A stretch of 64,000 bases of DNA from a virus. The translations under genes and the position numbers were made by a program. Positions within the stretch are counted from its first letter, which is position 1; each line of letters starts with the position of its first letter. The notes below the pieces were generated by a model, which worked only from the letters and a program-made list of their open reading frames with translations, searched no databases and was not told the DNA's origin. Below, piece by piece: positions 138 to 42,688 of the stretch. Location of the stretch: positions 16,186 through 80,185 of IMG/VR virus record IMGVR_UViG_3300009514_000016; one strand, written 5' to 3'.

Positions 138-1286
138 TCATTTTTCTTTCTTTTGCAGCCCAGGGACCATAACAGGATTATTTAATCCTTCCACCTGAGA
201 AAAACAAGAATTTCCATCACTATTCTGTGACTTGAGAATCTCCTCCTGCAACCGCTTCTGCGTTCTTCTTAACAAATTAAGTGATCCCACATAATCTGCG
301 TCAGCTTTATGTCCGCATTGTTTGCAATGAAAACTCTCCTTACTCCTGTTCTTAATGGACTCCCAACCACAAAGCGGACATATCCTGGAAGTGTTTTTTG
401 GATCAACCTCTAAAAGATGAACACGGTTCTCTTCTGACTTGTTTCTGATCCTCATTACCACCTGAGAATATGCCCATGGGGCCATCTGTTTTCTTAACTT
501 CTTATAACTCTTCTTTGAAGTGTTCTTCTTCAAATTTGTCAAATCTTCAATTCCTAAAACCTGGATTTCATCCCAAGGGAGATTCTTAATAACCTTAGCA
601 ATATAGTCATCTCTCCTCTTAATGGCTCTCCTTTTAGCTATGGAACCTTGCTTCTTTCTAGCAACAGCTTGACATAGTTCCTTAATTTTTATTCCATATC
701 TCCTATTCTTATTGTCAACACAGAGTTTATTATAACCAAGGTCAATTGCTAAAGTGTCTCCCTTAGTCTTTAATGGAGTGTCAGGAACTTCAACAAATAA
801 ACTGATATATTTATTGGATAACTGACAACCTTGAAGCAGTTTAGCCCCTGGTTTCTTTAACCACCTGTTTAGTGCTCTATTTGATTTAATAGGAACTTCA
901 ATTGGAGAACCTTTTTTCATTCCAGAGATTCTAACACAATAATCAAAGTGTTCTTGTCTAAATTTTTCAACTTTGCAAGTGTTTATAGAAAGTCTGATTG
1001 CTCCTTCAACTTTTGGAACAGAAGCTTTAACTTTTAGTGCTTTTGCTGATTTCTTTGTGGAAATAACAGTTTCCAAAGAAAATTTTAATGCTTCAGTCTT
1101 TTGCCTATAACCAAGAGAGCCAGAATTTAATCTTTTCAATGTTTTAGCATCTAGCTTCCCTTTTTCTATCCAAAGAGAGGGAATATAAGAATTCACTGCA
1201 TGAAGAAGCTCTCTTCTATAAGCTTGAAGAGCTTTCTTTTTCTCTTGAGTTAGATGGGATATGGATATTTTAAAACTTCTTAACAT
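138..1286 (-). CDS. tnpB: TnpB-type RNA-guided nuclease (IS200/IS605 OrfB family)
   Basis: The 382-residue product has the complete TnpB layout: RuvC-I Asp in AIDLGYNK (about residue 182), RuvC-II Glu in GIEDLTNLKK (about 247), a CPLC...CKQC zinc ribbon (about 303-324) and RuvC-III Asp in ADADYVGSLNLL (about 331). Length and all catalytic residues are normal, so it should be active. TnpB proteins are RNA-guided DNA nucleases that help maintain IS605-type elements. No tnpA transposase lies beside it, so the element is TnpB-only or a domesticated copy. I chose the ATG at 1286 over an in-frame TTG at 1304, because that TTG lies within a TATAAT-like promoter region and the ATG begins the usual conserved N-terminus. 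The gene sits at the edge of phage accessory DNA, as is common for homing-like elements. Confidence 0.9.
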   Translation of the reverse strand: MLRSFKISISHLTQEKKKALQAYRRELLHAVNSYIPSLWIEKGKLDAKTLKRLNSGSLGYRQKTEALKFSLETVISTKKSAKALKVKASVPKVEGAIRLSINTCKVEKFRQEHFDYCVRISGMKKGSPIEVPIKSNRALNRWLKKPGAKLLQGCQLSNKYISLFVEVPDTPLKTKGDTLAIDLGYNKLCVDNKNRRYGIKIKELCQAVARKKQGSIAKRRAIKRRDDYIAKVIKNLPWDEIQVLGIEDLTNLKKNTSKKSYKKLRKQMAPWAYSQVVMRIRNKSEENRVHLLEVDPKNTSRICPLCGWESIKNRSKESFHCKQCGHKADADYVGSLNLLRRTQKRLQEEILKSQNSDGNSCFSQVEGLNNPVMVPGLQKKEK

Positions 1287-1295
1287 AGTGTGTTT

Positions 1296-1301
1296 ATTAT
1301 A
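1296..1301 (-). promoter_or_regulatory. Candidate -10 box of tnpB
   Basis: TATAAT on the minus strand with 9 nt to the ATG at 1286. It belongs to the GTATAAT class seen before many minus-strand genes here. The expected transcript would have only a few untranslated bases. No good -35 is visible. Confidence 0.45.
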
Positions 1302-1330
1302 CAATGGATTATTTTGCGGAAAGTGAAAAC

Positions 1331-1709: not shown

Positions 1710-2654
1710 ATGAACAACTGGCCAAATAACTGGTATAGTCAATTCAATAAAATAGCTCAATCTCGTGGTGCTTTGCAAGACATAATCGATGTGCAGAATA
1801 TATTTATTGATTCATTTGCTGAAACCGGGAAAATTGATCAAAAACTGCAGCAATCTATCGTTGATCCTGTTGTTGAAAATTCTGTGCGCGAATTGAGCGC
1901 ATCAGTGTCTCAATGGATAGATGATGTTCTGTCTCAAACAAATCAGTGGACGCGCGGAGATCAGAGAGATTTGTCTGTATCAGACTTGAATGTCACTTTA
2001 GAGCATAGTTGGGCGAATGCTATGAGAGAATCAAATACTTTTTATATAAATTTTTCATCTCCAATAACTAATAAAAATAGAGATTCATTATTGCGGATTA
2101 GCGAGATGACTCCCCCAGGAATGGTGGAAGGATATTCCAGCAGAGAATCGATTAGGACATATGATTTTGTAGAATTCAATATCAGAATACTTATAAAAAG
2201 CATATTGACAAGCATGATGTCTGAATCAATTAACGTATCTGGCAAGGGCGTCTATAGCGCATACGAAAAGTTTCTTGAGAAATGGATCATTCCGAATGTG
2301 AGCACAGAATATTATCCGCCAAATCCAAATAAACCCGGAGAAAAGATGCGCCCACATGGTCAACAAACTCATTTGTGGCATTTGGTTCATAAGCAGTTTC
2401 TTCCATCAAAAATATGGGATCTGATAGAAAAATACGGATTCAACATGACAGTCAGAGGAGATCATTCTTCCCTGTCATATAAAAGCCAGAGAACTAAAGC
2501 GCCATACAGATACGATCCAAGAAAAGGCACAACTGATTTCATTAAATTTCCAAGCATGGCAAATAAATGGGCGGAAAATAAAATGATAACAGACAATGAT
2601 AAAGTGAAGCTCATTAGTTTTATTCAGGAGGCAATGGATATCAAAGATGAGTAA
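1710..2654 (+). CDS. N-tagged hypothetical protein, MNNWPNNWY leader
   Basis: Unrecognised 314-residue protein. It opens with MNNWPNNWYSQFNKIAQS, a variant of the leader shared by about nine proteins in this window, here with the NNW unit doubled. The body has a helical stretch (residues 20-75) containing FAETGK...DPVVENSVREL, which resembles the AEKGH...VTDL segment of the proteins at 3380 and 62567. The three therefore probably form a paralogous family. No membrane segment or catalytic motif is visible. No clear Shine-Dalgarno precedes the ATG. It is the first gene of a tight plus-strand run and its end overlaps the next start by 8 nt. If the leader is a capsid-targeting signal, as I infer, this would be an internal virion protein. 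Confidence 0.75.
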   Translation: MNNWPNNWYSQFNKIAQSRGALQDIIDVQNIFIDSFAETGKIDQKLQQSIVDPVVENSVRELSASVSQWIDDVLSQTNQWTRGDQRDLSVSDLNVTLEHSWANAMRESNTFYINFSSPITNKNRDSLLRISEMTPPGMVEGYSSRESIRTYDFVEFNIRILIKSILTSMMSESINVSGKGVYSAYEKFLEKWIIPNVSTEYYPPNPNKPGEKMRPHGQQTHLWHLVHKQFLPSKIWDLIEKYGFNMTVRGDHSSLSYKSQRTKAPYRYDPRKGTTDFIKFPSMANKWAENKMITDNDKVKLISFIQEAMDIKDE

Positions 2655-3378
2655 CTGGTACAACATATTTAATCACAAAATGGCTCAAAACACTTCTTCA
2701 TACCCATATGAGAAAAATCCATTTAGCCTATCCAAAAGAGAAGTGGAACAACTCATGCATGACGCCAACAGAGATGTCGCTGATAAAGTCGCTGTCAACT
2801 CTGTGGGATCTCTATCTGAAAGAGATCTGGGATCCATAATGCAAGGAGGCGAGGATACTGTCAATGATATGTTTGATGAATTTATAAAAATTAAAGCTTC
2901 ATGGAGCGGCGGAATCATCCAAATATATATAAAAACTCCAGATCCCGCAAAAGAAGATCATATCACCCTTTACCTTAATGATATGGGAGTCGATGACGAA
3001 ACAGAGTTAGCTAATTATCTCCATGGCGCTGTATATGGGATGATTGTTCAATTTGTGTCCGATATGCACATTCAATACTCAACCGATGATATTCAAGGGG
3101 CAATTGACGATTTCTATAGCGGTGTAAGGCCATCTGATCTATCTTCTAAGGAAACACCCGAATATGAAGCGGAAATGCCACAGGAGGCCCCACAAGAGCC
3201 TGCAAAGGCTAAAAAACCATGGTATCACGAATATCTCAAGCAAGAACTAGAACACCAAAGAATTCAAGACAAAACATTTGAAGAAAAACTCATAGAAGAG
3301 ACTAAAGGAGACAAATTAGAGCAACAATTGCGGGAGTGGGAAGCTAAGGGATATATTTCAAGAAGACCTAGACGATAA
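2647..3378 (+). CDS. N-tagged hypothetical protein (243 aa)
   Basis: Unrecognised. It starts MSNWYNIFNHKMAQN, the same aromatic-rich leader ending in AQ as its neighbours. The first two thirds look globular and the last third is charged and Pro/Glu/Lys rich (PQEAPQEPAKAKKP, then a highly charged helix ending in RRPRR). The ATG lies inside the last codons of the upstream gene, consistent with translational coupling. The next gene starts 2 nt after its stop. No enzyme motif seen. Confidence 0.75.
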   Translation: MSNWYNIFNHKMAQNTSSYPYEKNPFSLSKREVEQLMHDANRDVADKVAVNSVGSLSERDLGSIMQGGEDTVNDMFDEFIKIKASWSGGIIQIYIKTPDPAKEDHITLYLNDMGVDDETELANYLHGAVYGMIVQFVSDMHIQYSTDDIQGAIDDFYSGVRPSDLSSKETPEYEAEMPQEAPQEPAKAKKPWYHEYLKQELEHQRIQDKTFEEKLIEETKGDKLEQQLREWEAKGYISRRPRR

Positions 3379-3379
3379 A

Positions 3380-4357
3380 ATGAATAACTGGTATCTCAAA
3401 TTCATCAAACTGGCGCAAGAAGAAAAGTCTCCAACATGGCAAGATGAATTCGCTGATATTAAAGATCGTTTCAGCGTCGCTCACGATATGATGGCAGAAA
3501 AAGGCCACCAAACCTTTCAAGACCCCATGGTCACTGATCTTACAAATATTGATTATATATCAGAACAATTCTTAAATCAACACACTAGCGAAATTTTAGA
3601 CAAAATAGAAACACTAAAAAGAAGTTACCAAAACCAAACAAATATCAATGATGAACCACAAGAAATGCCAGATGCTTGGATTGGACCCTATCACGAAGAA
3701 GAAATAACATATCCAGAAGCCAGAGGAAGATTAATGTTTAATTTGCCGCTAATGAATTACAACATAAGCATCAATATGGATATGTATATTGACGAACACC
3801 CATCAACATTTGCTTGGAATCCTAATAATTCATATTTTTCACTTGCAGCAGATTTCACTTCAGAACCAGTTTTATCTAAGAAAGCATTCGAAGGAGAACG
3901 CGGAGGAAGCTCAATAGTTCATATCCCATACACCTTAGCTAATGAAAAATATATAAAGCCATACCTGAAAAATCTAATAAATGGATCAGTTCATAGCTAC
4001 ATCAATCGAAATAGCAACGCACTTCAAGATATGCTCCAATCAAAAGCACCTGATCAACATATCGGAAACCTAAATAAAAACAACCAAATGCTAATGAATA
4101 TAGCATGGAAATTCAATGAAGCAAATACTAATAATTGCACTCCAGAAATTCTAGATGGACAATTAGATGGATTGCAACTGGCCGCAGAAATATGCGAACA
4201 CCCATATATCAGAAAAATCTACAATGACCACATCAATCCTGACGATAGGCGAGAATCTATCTATGTTAGCAGCCTGTGGTCTCTCCCATATTCTGTTTTT
4301 GTGCATTTAGTTCACTGGATGGAAGAATTTATCAATAAGAATTCTGGGCCATCCTAA
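3380..4357 (+). CDS. N-tagged hypothetical protein, paralogue of the 62.6-kb gene
   Basis: A 325-residue protein starting MNNWYLKFIKLAQEE, the clearest copy of the N-terminal tag. Residues 35-60 (MMAEKGHQTFQDPMVTDL) match the corresponding part of the protein at 62567 (ILAEKGHTEYESQDITDL). Both then continue into a globular domain ending with an aromatic/hydrophobic helix (VFVHLVHWMEEFI versus VLIHVINYMKDKI). The two are therefore paralogues of unknown function at opposite ends of the window. Its stop overlaps the convergent minus-strand gene by 4 nt. No catalytic motif visible. Confidence 0.78.
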   Translation: MNNWYLKFIKLAQEEKSPTWQDEFADIKDRFSVAHDMMAEKGHQTFQDPMVTDLTNIDYISEQFLNQHTSEILDKIETLKRSYQNQTNINDEPQEMPDAWIGPYHEEEITYPEARGRLMFNLPLMNYNISINMDMYIDEHPSTFAWNPNNSYFSLAADFTSEPVLSKKAFEGERGGSSIVHIPYTLANEKYIKPYLKNLINGSVHSYINRNSNALQDMLQSKAPDQHIGNLNKNNQMLMNIAWKFNEANTNNCTPEILDGQLDGLQLAAEICEHPYIRKIYNDHINPDDRRESIYVSSLWSLPYSVFVHLVHWMEEFINKNSGPS

Positions 4358-6532: not shown

Positions 6533-7978
6533 CTAGTTTCTAATAGAATATTCCTTTTTCCAAATTAATATATCGATATTCCTGTCCTCGCGTGTTTTGC
6601 GAAGATATTCTCTCCTTTGCGTCGCAAAGGGAATTGTCTCATGAAAAACAATCCCGCACTTCTCTGCTATTTTCTTGCAATCATCAACTAAATTATACTT
6701 TCTTCTGATATCCTCAACATATAGCCCAAAATATCCGCCATCCCGAACATGCTCAACACTTTTAGAGATGAACGGTTCCACAAAATTGGAAAGCCACTCT
6801 GAATAATCGCTGGATGGCGTCACTCCCTTATACTTTTCCACATCCAAAAATGGCGGGGAAGTAAAAACTAAATCAAAACAATCTGAAACCCTATCCAACT
6901 CCTCCAAACAATCGCCATGAATCACTGACAAATCCATATCAATCTGCTTTCTAATGAACTCTGCAGTTTTATTCAAGCCACTCACAGTGTCTGGAGACAA
7001 GTCTATGCCAACATACTTAGAAATCCCAGAAGCGGAAAATCCCAACATCCGACCACTAAACCCCGCACAAGGATCTAAAACCGATATGTGCTCATCACCA
7101 AATAAATGATGCTTAATCATCTTGGCAACTCTCGGAGGAAAATTGTTGACAGTTCCAGCCTTATTCTCTGTTCTGCAAATTTCTCTAATTCTACTGATAT
7201 TCACTTTTGGATAACGAGCCAAAACCTTTCTAATGCCCCTCTTGAAATCTTTGTCAGAATTAAAAAACTCTAACGGAGACATTTTCCCTTTCCGATAACA
7301 CTCCATCATATGCGGATGAAAAGAACTGGCCAATCCGCTCCCAACTCCATCCCACCTATAGTTGTCTGCTTTAGGAATGTAGTCATAGATCGTTTTCCAC
7401 TTGGCTAACATTTGGTCGCCGCTAAAACGATAGTGGGGGAATCCGTGCTTGCGATACTCTTGAAATATTTCCTCAACCTGAGCATCCATCTTATTCTGAG
7501 TCTCCTCAGAATTTATTTTGCTCTTCAATTTTTCAATCTGATTGACAGCAATCTTATTGCCTTTGGAAATATCCACTTCATTGTTATTGCCCAGCCACAT
7601 GGCTATCTGCTTCTGATCCTTGGAAATAACATCAGCAATGTCAACTTCAACAACGTCTTCTTTCATAACATTGCCACATGTCAAGGGAAAACCTGGAAAC
7701 CGAGATTGATATTCCGCCGCAGAGATATTGTGAACCTTCAAATGCCCAGTGTCATTCAACATCTTAAAAGGATGTTGGCATATCTGACACAAAATATAAT
7801 CCTGACCCAACACTCCATATTTTGACAAATAAGAGTTTTTATCTAACACTTTCTCTCTGACTTTGAGACGCTGATAGCATTTCTTGCAGCGCCCCTTAGA
7901 GAAATGAGGATATTCAATCAATCCGCATTCAACACATTTGTCGTGTTTGCGACTCCATTTATTCATATGCGCATCCAT
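6533..7978 (-). CDS. DNA methyltransferase with N-terminal zinc-finger modules
   Basis: A 481-residue protein. Residues 8-36 hold a CVEC...CKKC zinc ribbon. Residues 61-100 hold a Ros/MucR-like C2H2 unit (CQIC, then GHLKVHNISAAEY). Residues 300-475 form a SAM-dependent methyltransferase with motif I LDPCAGFSGR (301-310) before catalytic TSPPF (373-377). The SPP[FY] form is typical of amino methyltransferases (N4-cytosine or N6-adenine). The gene starts 3 nt after the stop of the upstream nuclease gene, which carries the same two finger modules in the same order. I infer a modification-plus-nuclease pair that shares one DNA-recognition module. A stand-alone modification or homing-type system is the alternative. 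Confidence 0.85.
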   Translation of the reverse strand: MDAHMNKWSRKHDKCVECGLIEYPHFSKGRCKKCYQRLKVREKVLDKNSYLSKYGVLGQDYILCQICQHPFKMLNDTGHLKVHNISAAEYQSRFPGFPLTCGNVMKEDVVEVDIADVISKDQKQIAMWLGNNNEVDISKGNKIAVNQIEKLKSKINSEETQNKMDAQVEEIFQEYRKHGFPHYRFSGDQMLAKWKTIYDYIPKADNYRWDGVGSGLASSFHPHMMECYRKGKMSPLEFFNSDKDFKRGIRKVLARYPKVNISRIREICRTENKAGTVNNFPPRVAKMIKHHLFGDEHISVLDPCAGFSGRMLGFSASGISKYVGIDLSPDTVSGLNKTAEFIRKQIDMDLSVIHGDCLEELDRVSDCFDLVFTSPPFLDVEKYKGVTPSSDYSEWLSNFVEPFISKSVEHVRDGGYFGLYVEDIRRKYNLVDDCKKIAEKCGIVFHETIPFATQRREYLRKTREDRNIDILIWKKEYSIRN

Positions 7979-7981
7979 AAA

Positions 7982-9145
7982 TTACTGTGATTCAGAAGTT
8001 AATTGCAAAGAATCTCTAAATTGTTTTAGTGCATCTTCTGCTGAATAGTCTTTAATTGGCAGTCCTAAATCTGGAAATAATTCGCATATTTCTTCCAAAT
8101 AAAAATCATTTCTTATATCATGGCCCCAAAATTTTATAGCATTCCATTCATGTTGGGCAAATTTTTTAAATCTCTTTTTGTCTAAAACAAAATTGCGCGC
8201 AACCCACCCATCTAGTTCATCGAATTCTTTTTTCCCAGAGAGGTATTCCCATCCATGCCAATAATCCCCCATAATTTCTATTATAATTTTCCTTTCTGGG
8301 TCGGCAAAATCAGTTGTGGCAAAATCCATAAAATTATACTGCCATACAATTTTAGGCGATTTTTCAGCATTTATATCTCCAATTTGAATGTGATATCCAC
8401 GATTCAGCATCCAATTGGCAAATTTTCTTTCAATTCCAGAGACTTTTTCAAAACCGCCTTCTCTATTTTTTTTGATCATTCTGGCTCTTTGAGCTTCGCA
8501 CTGCTCAGGGGAATTGATATATCCCCTAGTTTCTTTGAGTAATATTCTTCCAGCAGAAGTGGCTTCGCTTCTATAATCAAGAATTTTTTGAGCCATCATG
8601 GGATAATTAGGAAATTCATCTTTATATTCAGATGTCTTTATATTATGAATTTTTAGGTGCCCATAATCAGCGAGCCACAAAAATGGTTCATGACATATTC
8701 GGCAAATAACATAATCTTCATTTTCTACACCATCTTCCATTATTTCTGCATTTTTAGCTCTAGTTTTTTCTTTGCCTCTCTCGTTTTCAATTTCATTTCT
8801 ATGATCTTTATAGCATATTTCACACATTCCTAAAGACTTATGCGCATATTCTGTGCTTTTACATTGCACGCATTTCTTATGTTTTTTAGACCATTTTCCG
8901 TTTAAAGAATTCATACTGGGTTTTCCTGTTGTGATTTTTCGTAGATTCTCAGCCCCTTTGGAATAGAATTTTTTCATTTCCTCAGGCTTGTCCTTCATCC
9001 ATGATTCTCTTGTCGGCGCATTATGTTTTGCTTTATACTCTTTGGCGCTCATTCCATGAACTTGTCTAACATGACTCAAAATCGTTTTCTCTTGTTCGAA
9101 TCCACATTCTTCACATTTTAACATCTCATTATTCCTTTGTTTCAA
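7982..9145 (-). CDS. Zinc-finger Vsr/DUF559-like nuclease, partner of the methyltransferase
   Basis: A 387-residue protein with three metal-binding units: CEEC...H....H (residues 11-30, Ros/MucR-like), CVQC...CEIC (92-111), and CRIC...GHLKIHNIKTSEY (148-174). The last two match the modules of the downstream methyltransferase in sequence and order. Residues 239-355 resemble the Vsr/DUF559 branch of PD-(D/E)XK nucleases: NFMDFA, then KIIIEIMGDYWHG (Glu290, Asp294), then a late FW..D strand. It is the first gene of a two-gene operon behind a GTATAAT box at 9198. Likely role: sequence-specific cleavage of DNA lacking the partner's methylation, aimed at competitor or host DNA. The pairing is inference; the domains are visible. 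Confidence 0.78.
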   Translation of the reverse strand: MKQRNNEMLKCEECGFEQEKTILSHVRQVHGMSAKEYKAKHNAPTRESWMKDKPEEMKKFYSKGAENLRKITTGKPSMNSLNGKWSKKHKKCVQCKSTEYAHKSLGMCEICYKDHRNEIENERGKEKTRAKNAEIMEDGVENEDYVICRICHEPFLWLADYGHLKIHNIKTSEYKDEFPNYPMMAQKILDYRSEATSAGRILLKETRGYINSPEQCEAQRARMIKKNREGGFEKVSGIERKFANWMLNRGYHIQIGDINAEKSPKIVWQYNFMDFATTDFADPERKIIIEIMGDYWHGWEYLSGKKEFDELDGWVARNFVLDKKRFKKFAQHEWNAIKFWGHDIRNDFYLEEICELFPDLGLPIKDYSAEDALKQFRDSLQLTSESQ

Positions 9146-9197: not shown

Positions 9198-9203
9198 ATT
9201 ATA
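9198..9203 (-). promoter_or_regulatory. Candidate -10 box of the nuclease-methyltransferase operon
   Basis: AGTATAAT on the minus strand, about 55 nt before the nuclease ATG. No clear -35 hexamer. A cluster of ATCGAT-like sites lies 50-130 bp upstream and may be operators. Confidence 0.5.
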
Positions 9204-9248
9204 CTATTGATTTTTGGCATCCGTGAAAGAAAAATGATTTTCTCAAAG

Positions 9249-9328: not shown

Positions 9329-9346
9329 ATTAAACAGTTAAAAAGA

Positions 9347-9373
9347 AAAGGGAGAGAACGAGTCTCTCCCTTT
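9347..9373 (-). terminator. Rho-independent terminator after the capsid gene
   Basis: An 11-bp perfect stem (AAAGGGAGAGA / TCTCTCCCTTT) with a 5-nt loop. On the minus strand it is followed by a T-rich run. It lies about 40 nt past the stop of the major capsid gene and ends the long structural transcript. Confidence 0.85.
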
Positions 9374-9410
9374 CTAACTCCTTGATTTATAAGGACTTAC
9401 CTAGATCGGA

Positions 9411-10274
9411 TTAGGAACCAGATGTCACGCTGACTTTTGCCAGAGCATAGTCATTGATGATTACTATGCCCACTTCTTCATAAATTATCCAGCCAAGGCG
9501 AAGCTCTTTAGGGTTATCTGCTGGTAGAACGGTGATGTCCTGGCGAACCGGGAAGGCACCGACGTATTCGGCTGGAGCGAGCAGGAATACTTCGTCGGTT
9601 CTCATACGAGAAGAGACGTGAATATCTGCTGTCCAGAGGTGTCCGAATAAACCAGAGGTTAGAACCTCTCTCTGGGTTGCTTCATCGTAAACGGTTTTTC
9701 CGAAGTTACGAACGTCAGCATAGCGTGAAGCATGCATAACGATCTTAGCAACGGTTAGGTCGTGTTGCTCGATGAAAGCGAAAGCGCTGTTTAGGGCGGC
9801 TAGGGTTAGAGCGCCACCAGTTGTGGTGACAGTGTGATCAGCAAGAATGGAGCTTCTGATTGCGGCGAAGATGTTTGTATCTTCTTCCTTTTGAATAGCT
9901 TCTTTTGCTTTGATCTGAGCGCGGTCTACAATGTAGAATCTACGAGCTTTGATCTCGGAAATTCTGATTTGTGGGTTGACAGCGATCTCGAAAGTTGGGA
10001 CAAGGATTTCCTCGCCCTCGGTGATTTCGTCTGGCACAGCGCCTCTACGGGAGATGACGTGAGCGACTGAACGAACGTCTTTTTCGTAGCGAGCTAGGGC
10101 TCCTTGTGGTAGTTCGTCAACCATGAGAAGTTTACGACCTACAGCCTGATACTCAAGTGCTCTACGAATTGGTTCAACCATTGCCTGGGCAAGGGCTACA
10201 CGTCCTTCGTCTGTTTCAAGAGCTTGAGCGATAAGAGCTTCGCGTTCTGCTACTGCTGATTTATCTAAAGCCAT
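9411..10274 (-). CDS. Major capsid protein (HK97 fold)
   Basis: A 287-residue protein with HK97-type capsid character: a helical N-terminal arm, a long beta segment (VPTFEIAVNPQIRISEIKARRFYIVDRAQIKAKEAIQ), a spine-like helix and a C-terminal strand (IIYEEVGIVIINDYALAKVSV). It is the last gene of the structural block, followed at once by a strong terminator. Its codon choice is more GC-rich than that of neighbouring accessory genes, as expected for the most expressed gene. The ribosome binding site is AAAGGAATAAC. The 287-residue length suggests a compact HK97 core with little insertion. I see no cleavage site that clearly marks a removed delta domain. Confidence 0.82.
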   Translation of the reverse strand: MALDKSAVAEREALIAQALETDEGRVALAQAMVEPIRRALEYQAVGRKLLMVDELPQGALARYEKDVRSVAHVISRRGAVPDEITEGEEILVPTFEIAVNPQIRISEIKARRFYIVDRAQIKAKEAIQKEEDTNIFAAIRSSILADHTVTTTGGALTLAALNSAFAFIEQHDLTVAKIVMHASRYADVRNFGKTVYDEATQREVLTSGLFGHLWTADIHVSSRMRTDEVFLLAPAEYVGAFPVRQDITVLPADNPKELRLGWIIYEEVGIVIINDYALAKVSVTSGS

Positions 10275-19362: not shown

Positions 19363-21495
19363 CTAATCTTTTTGCTTCGCCTGCCTGATGGTTTCAGCTT
19401 TTTTCTGAACATTGGCGATAATAACTTTTGCGACTTCTGGCATTTTTTCTTCAATTTCGAAATCTTTAAATCTCAAAATAGTCCATCCCATTCCAGCCAG
19501 CAACCTGTCTCTTTCTTGATCAGAGGCAATCTGCTCTGGAAGCCCATGGAATAATCGACCGTCTGCCTCAATTCCAAACTTTATTTCTGGCATAGCGAAA
19601 TCAAGAGCAAAATCTTTTCCGCCTTTTGGGTTTTTCACTGGATACTGAGCATATTTGGCATACGGAATATTCATTCCCATTAATGCCTTATACATTTTGC
19701 GCTCAATGGAAGTAAACTGAATTTGTTGTCTTTGAACTTCTAAATAATCACCTTCTCCACCGCTGCTCTTTTTCTGCTTCTTAGCTTTTTCTGGAGTTAA
19801 TATCTTGCCGCCAGTTCCTGCCAATGCTGGACCCGGCATTCCGCCTCCTCCAGATTCTGCTGGAGGCGGCGCTCCTCCCGGTGCTCCTCCTGGTGCTCCA
19901 CCTAAGCCTCCTCCTGGTGGTGGTGGCATTGGAAGTCCGCCTCCCATTCCTCCTCCGAAACCGCCGCCCATGCCGCCCATGCCGCCTCCAATCGGAGCGC
20001 CCATGCTCGCCATTTGCTCTGCTTGCTCGAATCTTAGACGTTCAATTTCTTGATCAAAATCTATGCCGCCAAATAGTTCCCATAGAGTTTCTCTGGAAAT
20101 ATCTCCATTGCTTTTCATTTGCAATAGCATTTGCAATTTGGCTGAATTATCTCTGATCTTGAGATCATTCCATTTGATTTCTGGGACGACGTACACAGTC
20201 TCGCCCATCTTCTTGGATTTTTCTTCATCAATAAATCCGCGCATCTTGGCCAATGGCAAGAATATCTTCTCTTCAATCCACTCAGCAAGCTCTGTTCGCC
20301 AAGATTCCAATTTCTGAATCATAGCTTCAACACCAACCGCCGCAGATTGATAAGCAGCGGCCTCTCCGTTGAGCAGGGCTTGGTTAATCATCATTCCATC
20401 AAGAATTTCTTGAGAGATTAACTCAAATTCATTGCTCAGAGATAGGACGCGACCTGATGTTCCATACCATTCATAATCAAAAGCATGGTGAGTTACCAAA
20501 GTCAGGTTTGGATCGTTTGCCGTCAAAGCCAATTGAGCCTGAACATTCGCCAAGTCTTCTGGACCCGCTGGACGATCATCATTTCCAACCTTGACGACTC
20601 TAACTGGGAGAATTAATCTTTCCGCGACAATCCATTGAGCGACCATGAGCTTGTCTTTGTATGACAAAATCTTGAATAGTCGGCGGATAAAAGAAGATCC
20701 ATAAGTTGTATAAGAATTTCCCTTATGTTTTAGATGGGAAACAACTCTATTACTTAATTTTATTGGCTGACCAGCAGCAACTTTTTTTCTAACTTCAAGA
20801 GGAAGTCTCTCATAAATCTCTCTAGGAGATCTGGTCATCACCACTGATTTCAAAGTTTCATCTGGCAACATCTTGATCTGTGGGTCGTCAACAAAAGGAG
20901 AGTCTTCAACCTCTACATTGTCTGGGTTGAGAATAATAATTGCTGAGAATTCTCCGCCTTCATGATTGCATACCCCACCAGTTTCTGGATCAACAGAGCT
21001 TCCAGCACATTTGTCGCATTTGACTTGGAGCATTGGGAACACATCGCCAATGACAAGTCTATCATGAGAAATTTCTTTGAGGATTCTATTGAGTTTTATT
21101 TTCTTGCAGAAACTTTCGTAATATTGTTTGATATTTCTGTCTTGGCACTGCAGAGTAAATCCATTCATAGGAAATTCAGAATACCAGTCAATCGCAGCGG
21201 CAACTTTAGGCTCATTCTCATAAAAATATCTAGCCCATTGCATAACCTCTCTGCGCTTTGACGGAATCTGCCAGTTGATAGGCGTGTGAAGCGGAGAGTA
21301 ATATTGCGGTTGAGTTGTTATAACATTGCCGCCGATTCCGCCTGTCAACCCTGAGACACTGCCCAATCCAGCAATTCTAGTAAATTTCTTATCGTTGGCC
21401 GCTTGAATAGTCAATCCCTGTTTAGACATATGGTATGCCTCTTCAGTTCTACTAGTGATTATTTTGTTGGTAACTATTCTAGGAATCTTGTTCAT
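19363..21495 (-). CDS. Portal protein fused to a C-terminal DUF559/Vsr-like nuclease domain
   Basis: A 710-residue protein. Residues 1-500 have the portal pattern: tail-side wing (MQWARYFYENEPKVAAAIDWYSEFPMNGF), clip/stem region (NRVVSHLKHKGNSYTTYGSSFIRRLFKILSYKDKLMVAQWIVAERL) and late crown helices. A small CDKC...C.H insertion near 175 may bind zinc. A Gly/Pro-rich linker (about 505-575) leads to residues 595-690. This last part reads as a DUF559/Vsr-type PD-(D/E)XK fold: DFAMPEIKFGIEADG (Asp632, Glu643, Asp645), HGLPEQ..SDQERDR, GWTILRFKDFEI. A nuclease tethered to the DNA channel is unusual. It could act on packaged or ejected DNA, or help packaging termination. One 12-fold portal would carry twelve such domains. 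Confidence 0.82.
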   Translation of the reverse strand: MNKIPRIVTNKIITSRTEEAYHMSKQGLTIQAANDKKFTRIAGLGSVSGLTGGIGGNVITTQPQYYSPLHTPINWQIPSKRREVMQWARYFYENEPKVAAAIDWYSEFPMNGFTLQCQDRNIKQYYESFCKKIKLNRILKEISHDRLVIGDVFPMLQVKCDKCAGSSVDPETGGVCNHEGGEFSAIIILNPDNVEVEDSPFVDDPQIKMLPDETLKSVVMTRSPREIYERLPLEVRKKVAAGQPIKLSNRVVSHLKHKGNSYTTYGSSFIRRLFKILSYKDKLMVAQWIVAERLILPVRVVKVGNDDRPAGPEDLANVQAQLALTANDPNLTLVTHHAFDYEWYGTSGRVLSLSNEFELISQEILDGMMINQALLNGEAAAYQSAAVGVEAMIQKLESWRTELAEWIEEKIFLPLAKMRGFIDEEKSKKMGETVYVVPEIKWNDLKIRDNSAKLQMLLQMKSNGDISRETLWELFGGIDFDQEIERLRFEQAEQMASMGAPIGGGMGGMGGGFGGGMGGGLPMPPPPGGGLGGAPGGAPGGAPPPAESGGGGMPGPALAGTGGKILTPEKAKKQKKSSGGEGDYLEVQRQQIQFTSIERKMYKALMGMNIPYAKYAQYPVKNPKGGKDFALDFAMPEIKFGIEADGRLFHGLPEQIASDQERDRLLAGMGWTILRFKDFEIEEKMPEVAKVIIANVQKKAETIRQAKQKD

Positions 21496-41062: not shown

Positions 41063-42688
41063 TTAGAATGGAATTCCTGGAATGCCGCTCAACATTTCCC
41101 CGCCTGCTTTTGGATTTTCCTCAACCAACATGACTTGGCTTGTTAGAAGCAATCCGGCAATGCTCGCAGCAGTTTCTAAAGCAGTTGTTGTAACTTTAGC
41201 TGGGTCAATGATTCCGCTCTCAACAACGTCTCCATACTCTCCACTCGCAGCATCATAGCCATATTCATACTTGTTTTCTCTGAGAACATTTTGGACAACA
41301 ACCTCCCCATTTGCTCCAGCATTCTCAGCAATTTTCATAATAGGAGCAGCAAGAGCTTCATAGACTATCTGAATTCCTCTTGCGAAATCTCCCTTATGTT
41401 CTTTGGCAAAGTCTGTTAGAACTTCTCTTGATCTTAGCAAAGCGATCCCACCTCCAGGGAGAACTCCAGTTTCAATTGCAGCTCTGGTTGCGTGTAGAGC
41501 ATCCTCGATTCTGGCTTTCTTTTCTTTCATCTCTACTTCAGTGGCAGCGCCAACATTAATCTGAGCAATTCCGCCAGCAAGTCTAGCTAGACGCTCTTGC
41601 AATTTCTCAGTTTCATATTCACTCTTTGAAGCAGCGATATGTGATTTGATTTGCTCAATTGCCTCGTCAATCTTTTCATCCTCGCCATAGCCATTGGTAA
41701 TAGTTGTTGAATGTTTGGTTATGACGATTTTCCCGCAACGTCCCATATCTTCAATTTTGAAGTCTCTAGCTTTCTTGCCTGAGTCTTTTAGGAGTGCTTT
41801 TCCGCCAGTGGCAACAGCAATATCTTCAATAAGGTTTCTCTGGGTGTCACCAACACCGGGGACTTTGACGCAGCAAGCACTCATTCTGCCTTGCAGCTTA
41901 TTGGTCAAAATGGTTGTCAAGAATATTTCAGAGAAATCTGGAGCAATGAGAACAACTGATTCGCCTTCATTGGCGCATGCTTGAAGCACTCCAGTTAAAT
42001 CTCTGATGTTCACATTTTTGTCATCTGTCAAAAACAGGCGAGCATTGTGGAAAACACATGTCTGCTTATCTTTTTCTGTTGCGAATGCCTGACTGACCCA
42101 TCCTTTATCAAATTGCATACCAGCAATTAGGTCGATATAAGTTTCATTGGTTTTGCCCTCTTCAACTGTGACAACGCCATCTGTCCCAACCTTCTCCATT
42201 GCATCAGCGATAATTTCGCCGATATAGGTATCGTTGTTGGATGCGATTGAGGCAACTTGAGTTACTTCATTTTTGCTGTCAATTTGCTTAACTTTGGCCT
42301 TCAAGTCTGCCATAACTTTATCGACCGCAGCGTGAATCCCGTTCTTTAGAGTGACTGGGTTAGCGCCAGCAGAAACTGCTTTTCTTCCGCTTTGATAAAT
42401 TGCTCTTCCAAGAACAGTAGAAGTTGTGGTTCCATCTCCAGCGACTTCAGCAGCTTTGACAGCAACTTCTTTTAGCATTCTTGCGCCAAGATTCACAAAT
42501 TCATCTGATACTTCAAATTCTTTTGCTACAGTAACGCCGTCTTTGGTGACTATTGGAGAACCGCCTAGTTTTCCAATGATAACATGTCTTCCTTTTGGCC
42601 CAAGAGTAGATCCAACTGCATCGGCAATTTGATTTACGCCTTGCTCAATAGCATCCTGAGCATACTCAAAGTATATGACTTTTTTCAT
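41063..42688 (-). CDS. groEL: GroEL chaperonin
   Basis: A full-length 541-residue GroEL with the ATP-binding motifs in place (GDGTTTSTVL near 86 and LPGGGIALL near 412). The apical domain is intact. The C-terminus ends GEMLSGIPGIPF without the Gly-Gly-Met tail of E. coli GroEL. Phage-encoded chaperonins fold capsid or other virion proteins. The location next to terminase and a GroES gene fits a dedicated head-assembly chaperone. It has its own GTATAAT box at 42719 and a GGAGAA ribosome binding site. Confidence 0.95.
   Translation of the reverse strand: MKKVIYFEYAQDAIEQGVNQIADAVGSTLGPKGRHVIIGKLGGSPIVTKDGVTVAKEFEVSDEFVNLGARMLKEVAVKAAEVAGDGTTTSTVLGRAIYQSGRKAVSAGANPVTLKNGIHAAVDKVMADLKAKVKQIDSKNEVTQVASIASNNDTYIGEIIADAMEKVGTDGVVTVEEGKTNETYIDLIAGMQFDKGWVSQAFATEKDKQTCVFHNARLFLTDDKNVNIRDLTGVLQACANEGESVVLIAPDFSEIFLTTILTNKLQGRMSACCVKVPGVGDTQRNLIEDIAVATGGKALLKDSGKKARDFKIEDMGRCGKIVITKHSTTITNGYGEDEKIDEAIEQIKSHIAASKSEYETEKLQERLARLAGGIAQINVGAATEVEMKEKKARIEDALHATRAAIETGVLPGGGIALLRSREVLTDFAKEHKGDFARGIQIVYEALAAPIMKIAENAGANGEVVVQNVLRENKYEYGYDAASGEYGDVVESGIIDPAKVTTTALETAASIAGLLLTSQVMLVEENPKAGGEMLSGIPGIPF

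What the first reader, a model, noticed from the sequence alone, without database searches (positions are those of the whole stretch)
6533..9145. Methyltransferase and Vsr-like nuclease sharing matched zinc-finger modules
Both proteins carry, in the same order, a W-S-[RK]-K-H..C-V-x-C zinc ribbon and a Ros/MucR-like C..C...GHLK[VI]HNI..EY unit. One continues into a SAM methyltransferase and the other into a nuclease. Sharing the recognition modules would give the two enzymes the same target. This would be a compact phage-borne restriction-modification-like system, or a way for the phage to exclude rivals that lack its methylation. The two are one operon.
Basis: partly seen in the sequence, partly recalled or inferred. 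Interest (0 to 1): 0.82.

Follow-up and report, generated by a model that had tools for sequence, protein, structure and literature searches.

The report
Self-protecting homing nuclease-methylase pair in phage
Next to its coat-protein gene this virus of microbes carries a DNA-cutting enzyme and a DNA-marking enzyme built on the same DNA-reading fingers, and many related viruses carry such cutter-plus-marker pairs, often fused into one protein, which suggests a selfish gene that marks its own DNA so that its cutter attacks only rivals.

Summary
Gene A (6533-7978, methyltransferase) and gene B (7982-9124, nuclease) share a zinc ribbon plus Ros/MucR unit in the same order (40% identity over 112 aa, E 2e-27), lie 3 nt apart, and each module keeps the codon composition of its own gene, so this is no recent duplication.

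Surroundings change the reading. The genes sit directly after the major capsid gene (MCP), a site that related phages fill with homing-type nucleases. There, A-type methyltransferases are coupled to such a nuclease: 11 distinct adjacent pairs and 13 distinct LAGLIDADG-methyltransferase fusions. Nuclease class varies (T7-EndoI-like, LAGLIDADG, Vsr-like here). Ten further distinct proteins join MucR/zinc modules, a Vsr-like nuclease and this methyltransferase in one chain, after another structural gene: the one-chain form of B+A.

Best reading: a homing/exclusion nuclease with a co-inherited methyltransferase that protects its target, between homing endonucleases and restriction-modification. 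Coupling and location are shown; common target, methylation-sensitive cutting and mobility are inferred. Against it: related nucleases also occur without the methyltransferase (L049, L031, L204), most pairs do not share modules, and the nuclease structure model failed. I found no prior description.

The parts
7982..9124 (-). Gene B: 380-aa nuclease (two MucR/C2H2-type units + zinc ribbon + Vsr-like PD-(D/E)xK nuclease); the ORF is open to a TTG at 9145
9020..9115 (-). B N-terminal C2H2/MucR-like unit CEECG...HVRQVHGMSAKEY (not present in A; shared with LAGLIDADG ORF L087:11999-13159)
   Evidence: (Bnterm vs L087 E 1e-9)
8807..8896 (-). B zinc ribbon WSKKH..CVQC...CEIC
8597..8713 (-). B Ros/MucR unit CRICHEPF...GHLKIHNIKTSEY
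8090..8437 (-). B nuclease domain (FMDF, IIIE, GDYWH, D315, D336), Vsr/DUF559/Hef-like
6533..7978 (-). Gene A: 481-aa amino-methyltransferase with zinc ribbon + MucR N-terminus
7871..7960 (-). A zinc ribbon WSRKH..CVEC...CKKC
7685..7801 (-). A Ros/MucR unit CQICQHPF...GHLKVHNISAAEY
6569..7501 (-). A helical middle domain + class I SAM methyltransferase (DPCAGFSGR 7049-7075; TSPPF 6848-6862), conserved with MCP-downstream methyltransferases of relatives
9346..9374 (-). Terminator-like hairpin with T-run between the MCP gene and B
9198..9227 (-). Promoter-like site (TTCACG-18-TATAAT) upstream of B; number of such sites in the region is not above chance
9411..10274 (-). Major capsid protein gene (phrog_2522); its downstream flank is the insertion hotspot

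Best explanation
A and B are one mobile unit: a homing-type (Vsr-like) endonuclease with its own protective methyltransferase, lodged behind the conserved capsid gene. B binds a long target through C2H2/zinc-ribbon/MucR modules and cuts it in DNA of co-infecting relatives that lack the element; repair from the donor copies the cassette, or the rival is simply destroyed. A carries the zinc-ribbon and MucR modules too, so it is directed to the same target and methylates it (N4-cytosine or N6-adenine) in the carrier's genome, making B's target unreadable or uncleavable there. In relatives the same arrangement is made with other nuclease families or as one fused polypeptide. Shown: shared modules, intact catalytic motifs, tight gene coupling, fusions, nuclease swapping with methyltransferase retention, capsid-flank location. 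Inferred: common DNA target, methylation blocking cleavage, actual mobility.
For: Shared module A/B, E 2e-27. Methyltransferases of A's clade directly behind the MCP in relatives are preceded by, or fused to, a homing-type nuclease: T7-EndoI-like with zinc finger/NUMOD3 (8 distinct loci), LAGLIDADG adjacent (2), LAGLIDADG fused (2). Eleven more distinct LAGLIDADG-methyltransferase fusions also lie directly after an MCP of the same family (MCP HMM E 1e-120 to 1e-125); one further fusion (L020) is 8 kb away. Ten distinct single-chain proteins have MucR/zinc units + Vsr-like nuclease + methyltransferase, 41-91% identical to L121, with both catalytic motif sets invariant in the three aligned in full. 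A falls with the MCP-downstream, nuclease-coupled methyltransferases (SH-aLRT 86), inside which the nuclease class changes repeatedly. MCP-downstream loci: nuclease present in 15/16 with and 18/49 without methyltransferase, p 5e-5; dereplicated 11/11 vs 18/47, p 1.5e-4. Module kin are homing endonucleases: L006 between the halves of a split-intein DNA polymerase gene, PA5oct 'Hef-like' next to tail sheath, L087 LAGLIDADG at the same MCP site. Methyltransferase core modelled at pLDDT about 90, with M.BseCI and CamA DNA methyltransferases among class I folds found.
Against: The methyltransferase is dispensable for related nucleases: L049 (close relative of the L052/L055 nuclease, intact motif) and L031 have the EndoI-type nuclease at the MCP site without it, L204 has the MucR+Vsr nuclease without it, and 18 MCP-downstream loci have nuclease only. 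In the NikA/RHH-type pairs nuclease and methyltransferase do not share modules, so 'matched modules' in two proteins is seen only once. No clean empty-site pair was found. Many other methyltransferases of the superfamily have no nuclease partner. The EndoI HMM was seeded from methyltransferase neighbours, which inflates the association test, and the loci are related by descent. B's fold was not confirmed. A's placement has support 86 and a long branch. No methylation or cleavage data exist.
Confidence: 0.5

Rival explanations
1. Hitchhiking cargo: B is an ordinary free-standing homing endonuclease that is safe in its own genome because its target is interrupted or diverged; A is a phage anti-restriction or regulatory methyltransferase that travels behind nuclease genes because that place is an insertion hotspot. 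The shared modules reflect general shuffling of homing-nuclease DNA-binding parts.
For: Nuclease-only loci are common at the site; LAGLIDADG ORFs with the same start as that of L047 occur alone in several loci; most pairs do not share modules; LAGLIDADG homing normally needs no methyltransferase (established knowledge).
Against: Fusions into one chain exist with two nuclease classes; 11/11 distinct MCP-downstream methyltransferases in the dereplicated count have a nuclease immediately upstream or fused; A and B modules are each other's nearest.
Confidence: 0.27
2. Phage-borne restriction-modification system of type II character used mainly to exclude other phages or plasmids, with a short recurrent target methylated across the whole genome, not a homing element.
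For: Nuclease and methyltransferase genes are neighbours with matched recognition parts; single-chain relatives resemble the type IIG layout; PADLOC type II methylase models hit A.
Against: Nuclease kin are homing enzymes and the nuclease class changes freely; location restricted to flanks of structural genes; nuclease occurs without methyltransferase; B has no PADLOC hit.
Confidence: 0.13
3. A uses its modules to bind at B's own locus or target and acts as a regulator or competitor of B rather than as a protective enzyme; methylation is secondary or lost.
For: Ros/MucR fingers are known transcriptional-regulator folds (established knowledge; Pfam match).
Against: SAM motif I and TSPPF intact in A and relatives.
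Confidence: 0.07

Closest known systems
Vsr-like (EDxHD) homing endonucleases of fractured genes / split inteins (Dassa et al. 2009, cited in PMC10448857; paper itself not held)
   Same: Catalytic E..GDYWH..D..D pattern; MucR-type unit; L006 shows this nuclease class with the MucR unit between the halves of a split-intein DNA polymerase gene
   Different: Here free-standing behind the capsid gene, with zinc ribbon added, and coupled to a methyltransferase carrying the same modules
Hef-like homing endonucleases of phages PA5oct and Campylobacter NCTC12673
   Same: PA5oct protein has the MucR unit (about 38% identical over 53 aa); both are placed next to tail sheath; related nuclease motif
   Different: No methyltransferase partner in the annotated neighbourhoods
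Actinophage methylase with internal LAGLIDADG domain, Taj_79 (PMC9957025)
   Same: LAGLIDADG nuclease and methylase in one polypeptide; authors considered and doubted an R-M role
   Different: There the nuclease is inserted inside the methylase; here nucleases of several classes are N-terminal fusions or separate genes repeatedly coupled to one methyltransferase family
Type II / IIG restriction-modification systems (review PMC4081073)
   Same: Nuclease and methyltransferase that may share target recognition; one-chain versions exist
   Different: Nucleases are of homing type, sited at phage structural-gene flanks, and also occur alone
phrog_12517 / N6_N4_Mtase phage methyltransferases
   Same: A and the relatives tested match this family
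   Different: Zinc-ribbon + MucR N-terminus of A was not seen on any other methyltransferase outside fusions

Membership tests
Vsr-like (EDxHD) homing endonuclease | Vsr-like active-site residues (D, E, H of GDYWH, distal D) | tested here: met
   Alignment with L006, L099, L120, L058: G286, H290, D315, D336 invariant
Vsr-like (EDxHD) homing endonuclease | PD-(D/E)xK / Vsr fold | tested here: inconclusive
   AlphaFold pLDDT 49.5; sequence search of PDB gave nothing significant
Homing endonuclease (any class) | Located in an intron, intein or flank of a conserved gene, patchy among relatives | tested here: met
   Directly after MCP; absent or replaced in the other MCP loci
Homing endonuclease (any class) | Empty target site present in element-free relatives, precise insertion | tested here: inconclusive
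   No relative close enough for a clean empty-site comparison
Homing endonuclease (any class) | Cuts a long specific site and is copied into it | not testable with these tools
   Needs biochemistry and mixed infections
Type II restriction-modification system | Adjacent nuclease and methyltransferase genes, both with intact catalytic motifs | tested here: met
   3-nt gap; motifs intact
Type II restriction-modification system | Nuclease needs its methyltransferase and does not occur without it | tested here: not met
   Related nucleases without methyltransferase: L049, L031, L204; B itself is known from this one record only, with A
Type II restriction-modification system | Methylation of the same site blocks cleavage | not testable with these tools
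   No methylome or assay
Type IIG single-chain R-M | Nuclease and methyltransferase in one chain sharing recognition domains | tested here: not met
   Window has two chains; relatives L121, L151, L134, L190-L200 have one chain
Amino-methyltransferase (N4C/N6A) | SAM motif I followed by [DNS]PP[YFW] motif | tested here: met
   DPCAGFSGR then TSPPF; class I fold, M.BseCI among hits

The most novel reading that the evidence does not exclude
There is a widespread class of mobile elements in phages in which one methyltransferase family gives modification-based immunity to interchangeable homing nucleases (LAGLIDADG, EndoI-like, Vsr-like), as pairs or single-chain enzymes: 'homing-modification' systems that bridge homing endonucleases and restriction-modification.
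Probability: 0.42. Interest if true: 0.88.

Novelty: new variant of a known kind. Interest (0 to 1): 0.76.

Why it matters
Homing endonucleases are normally thought to be harmless to their own genome because their insertion destroys the target, while restriction enzymes need methylation. Finding homing-class nucleases, including LAGLIDADG enzymes that a 2023 paper says had not been described as parts of R-M systems (PMC9957025), repeatedly paired with or fused to one methyltransferase family would link the two kinds of selfish DNA cutters, explain how a homing nuclease can afford a target that survives in its own genome, and offer zinc-module nuclease/methylase pairs with one specificity.

Tried and rejected
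Recent duplication of the module between A and B: rejected, module GC3 follows its own gene (A 0.43 in 0.42; B 0.22 in 0.27) and DNA identity is only 59%. Modules being common on unrelated phage proteins: scans for the zinc ribbon found only A, B and L087 plus chance ribbons in portal proteins L168/L170; a DNA pattern for HLKxHNIxxEY gave two chance hits; 50 relatives' records gave only nuclease or nuclease-methyltransferase carriers plus one weak match in an unrelated ORF. LAGLIDADG fusions being inteins inside the methyltransferase: rejected, the nuclease precedes the whole methyltransferase, and in L051 and L072 also its NikA/RHH N-terminus; no N-extein was seen. Direct protein-pattern scans with A, B or the module alone found almost nothing. 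Clean empty-site comparison failed. AlphaFold of B too poor to search. One paper wanted (PMC2677866) is not held.

Full report
OBSERVATION. The window is bases 16186-80185 of an 80,185-bp virus record. Two adjacent minus-strand genes lie at 7982-9124/9145 (B, nuclease) and 6533-7978 (A, methyltransferase), 3 nt apart. BLASTP between them aligns A 1-105 with B 78-189 at 40% identity, E 2e-27. Pfam ROS_MUCR is found in B (7.5e-11) and, slightly under the cut-off, in A (2.6e-4). Only these two ORFs of the record carry the module. B has one more C2H2/MucR-like unit at its N-terminus. B probably starts at ATG 9124, preceded by AAAGGA. A strong terminator-like hairpin lies between the capsid gene and B (9374-9346), and a promoter-like site lies at 9227-9198, though such sites are not more frequent than in shuffles.

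AGE OF THE SHARING. GC at third positions is 0.42 in A and 0.27 in B, and each module follows its own gene (0.43 and 0.22); module DNA identity is 59%. The sharing is old or was acquired long ago, not a fresh copy. Among 11 MucR-type units compared, A and B are each other's closest (52%). The zinc ribbon has one more real relative, in a LAGLIDADG ORF (L087:11999-13159) that also shares B's N-terminal unit.

WHAT THE NUCLEASE IS. B's C-terminal domain matches Vsr/DUF559/Hef-like nucleases: tblastn with the domain reaches a Vsr-annotated phage endonuclease and Campylobacter Hef-like homing endonucleases at weak E. The alignment with L006, L099, L120 and L058 keeps G286, H290, D315 and D336, and L099 hits Pfam DUF559. 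The MucR unit is met on homing nucleases: PA5oct 'Hef-like' beside the tail sheath gene, and L006, an ORF between the two halves of a DNA polymerase gene split at an intein, the 'fractured gene' arrangement attributed to Dassa et al. 2009 (reference seen in PMC10448857; the paper itself is not held and its content is from my own knowledge). The fold was not confirmed: AlphaFold gave pLDDT 49.5 from a shallow alignment.

WHAT THE METHYLTRANSFERASE IS. A matches phrog_12517 (1.5e-15) and amino-methyltransferase models. Residues 160-455 are modelled mostly at pLDDT about 90; Foldseek finds class I SAM methyltransferases, with the DNA methyltransferases M.BseCI and CamA among the hits. The order motif I then TSPPF, with a short C-terminal tail, leaves little room for a C-terminal recognition domain, so recognition probably sits in the N-terminal half: the middle helical domain and, in A, the zinc/MucR modules (inference).

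LOCUS IN RELATIVES. A scan with the capsid protein gave 80 loci (61-84% identical). The portal-to-capsid block is conserved and everything downstream of the capsid gene is variable. In 65 loci with at least 2.5 kb downstream: nuclease only 18, nuclease and methyltransferase 15, methyltransferase only 1, neither 31. Fisher p is 5e-5, or 1.5e-4 after dereplication (11/11 versus 18/47). Caveats: the loci are related and the EndoI HMM was seeded from methyltransferase neighbours. The nuclease in front of the methyltransferase is T7-endonuclease-I-like with zinc finger and NUMOD3 traits (L083, L052, L055, L026, L029, L044, L036, L065), LAGLIDADG in a separate ORF (L047, L050) or fused (L051, L072). 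Spacing between separate genes is -64 to +62 nt. These methyltransferases carry a NikA-like (RHH) N-terminus instead of A's zinc modules.

FUSIONS ELSEWHERE. The methyltransferase scan added LAGLIDADG-methyltransferase proteins L095, L106, L124, L129, L140, L147, L150, L156, L158 and L160, and a genome scan added L171. All eleven lie directly behind a capsid gene of the same family (HMM E 1e-120 to 1e-125). L020 has another such fusion, 8 kb behind its capsid gene. Three proteins, L121, L151 and L134, contain HTH repeats, zinc and MucR units, a Vsr/PD-(D/E)xK-type nuclease and the methyltransferase in one chain. A last scan raised this to ten distinct proteins: L121, L190, L191/L195, L192, L193/L194, L196, L151/L197, L198, L134/L199/L203, L200/L201. 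Where the upstream gene could be read it is a roughly 1,400-aa gene with a PPGVYTRTLTE start, tail-sheath-like by my reading but not confirmed by Pfam or PHROGs. These are one-chain counterparts of B+A: a single set of DNA-reading modules with both catalytic domains.

TREE. On the methyltransferase tree (80 rows, quick search) A falls with the capsid-flank, nuclease-coupled group (14 rows, SH-aLRT 86), although A has a long branch. Inside that group the labels EndoI-adjacent, LAGLIDADG-adjacent, LAGLIDADG-fused and Vsr-adjacent interleave. The Vsr-fused proteins form one starred clade next to the other LAGLIDADG fusions. So the methyltransferase stays while the nuclease class changes, which hitchhiking alone does not easily explain.

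COUNTER-EVIDENCE. L049 has a nuclease closely related to that of L052/L055, with intact motif, behind its capsid gene and directly followed by the gene that in L055 follows the methyltransferase: the methyltransferase is simply absent. L031 likewise has the nuclease alone, and L204 has the MucR+Vsr nuclease alone. The contig carrying L134 has a second MucR+Vsr nuclease without methyltransferase (L188). Hence the methyltransferase is an accessory, not a strict antidote, at least for those relatives. Two-chain sharing of modules is seen only in the window.

MECHANISM. Most likely B is a homing or exclusion nuclease and A shields the target in carrier DNA. Shown: coupling, intact motifs, shared modules, hotspot location, nuclease swapping, fusions. 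Inferred: common target, blocking by methylation, transfer between phages. Confidence 0.5 for the full chain; I would put functional coupling of A with B at about 0.85 and homing-type origin of B at about 0.8.

LITERATURE. Searches for LAGLIDADG or homing endonucleases with methyltransferases found no description of such systems. [quoted passage not shown] The library holds only open-licence papers, so absence is not proof of novelty.

Noticed in passing
window 19363-21495 and L077:798-3077, L079, L082, L084, L012 and others: Portal proteins of this phage family carry a C-terminal DUF559/Vsr-like nuclease-type domain (FEADGDFWHSD..RD..L...GW.V.R); the window portal hits HNH/homing endonuclease PHROGs at its C-terminus.
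   Followed up: partly
L087:13163-14648: Two paralogous ORFs (SLMSKNCIPLDDWSGFW... / GMMSKTAKPFDDWAGFW...) sit between a zinc-module LAGLIDADG ORF and an A-like methyltransferase that they overlap; L014 has an ORF in the same place before its methyltransferase. Unknown function.
   Followed up: no
L120:660-4210: Apparent fractured (split-intein-like) gene region with two Vsr-like nucleases, in a contig that also carries methyltransferases.
   Followed up: no
window 138-1304: TnpB/Cas12f-like transposon protein (Cas12f1-like_TNB, 1.7e-16) near the window end.
   Followed up: no
window 41063-42688: Phage-encoded Cpn60/TCP-1 chaperonin (7.3e-69).
   Followed up: no
L093-L123 (e.g. L101, L100): Other contigs carry two or three tandem paralogous methyltransferases of A's superfamily without any nuclease detected by these HMMs.
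   Followed up: no
window 1710-4357 and relatives: Many ORFs of this phage family begin with a near-identical leader such as MNNWYxKFxKLAQ / MNWYKKAQ / MKIxKTA, as if sharing an N-terminal signal (packaging or processing tag?).
   Followed up: no
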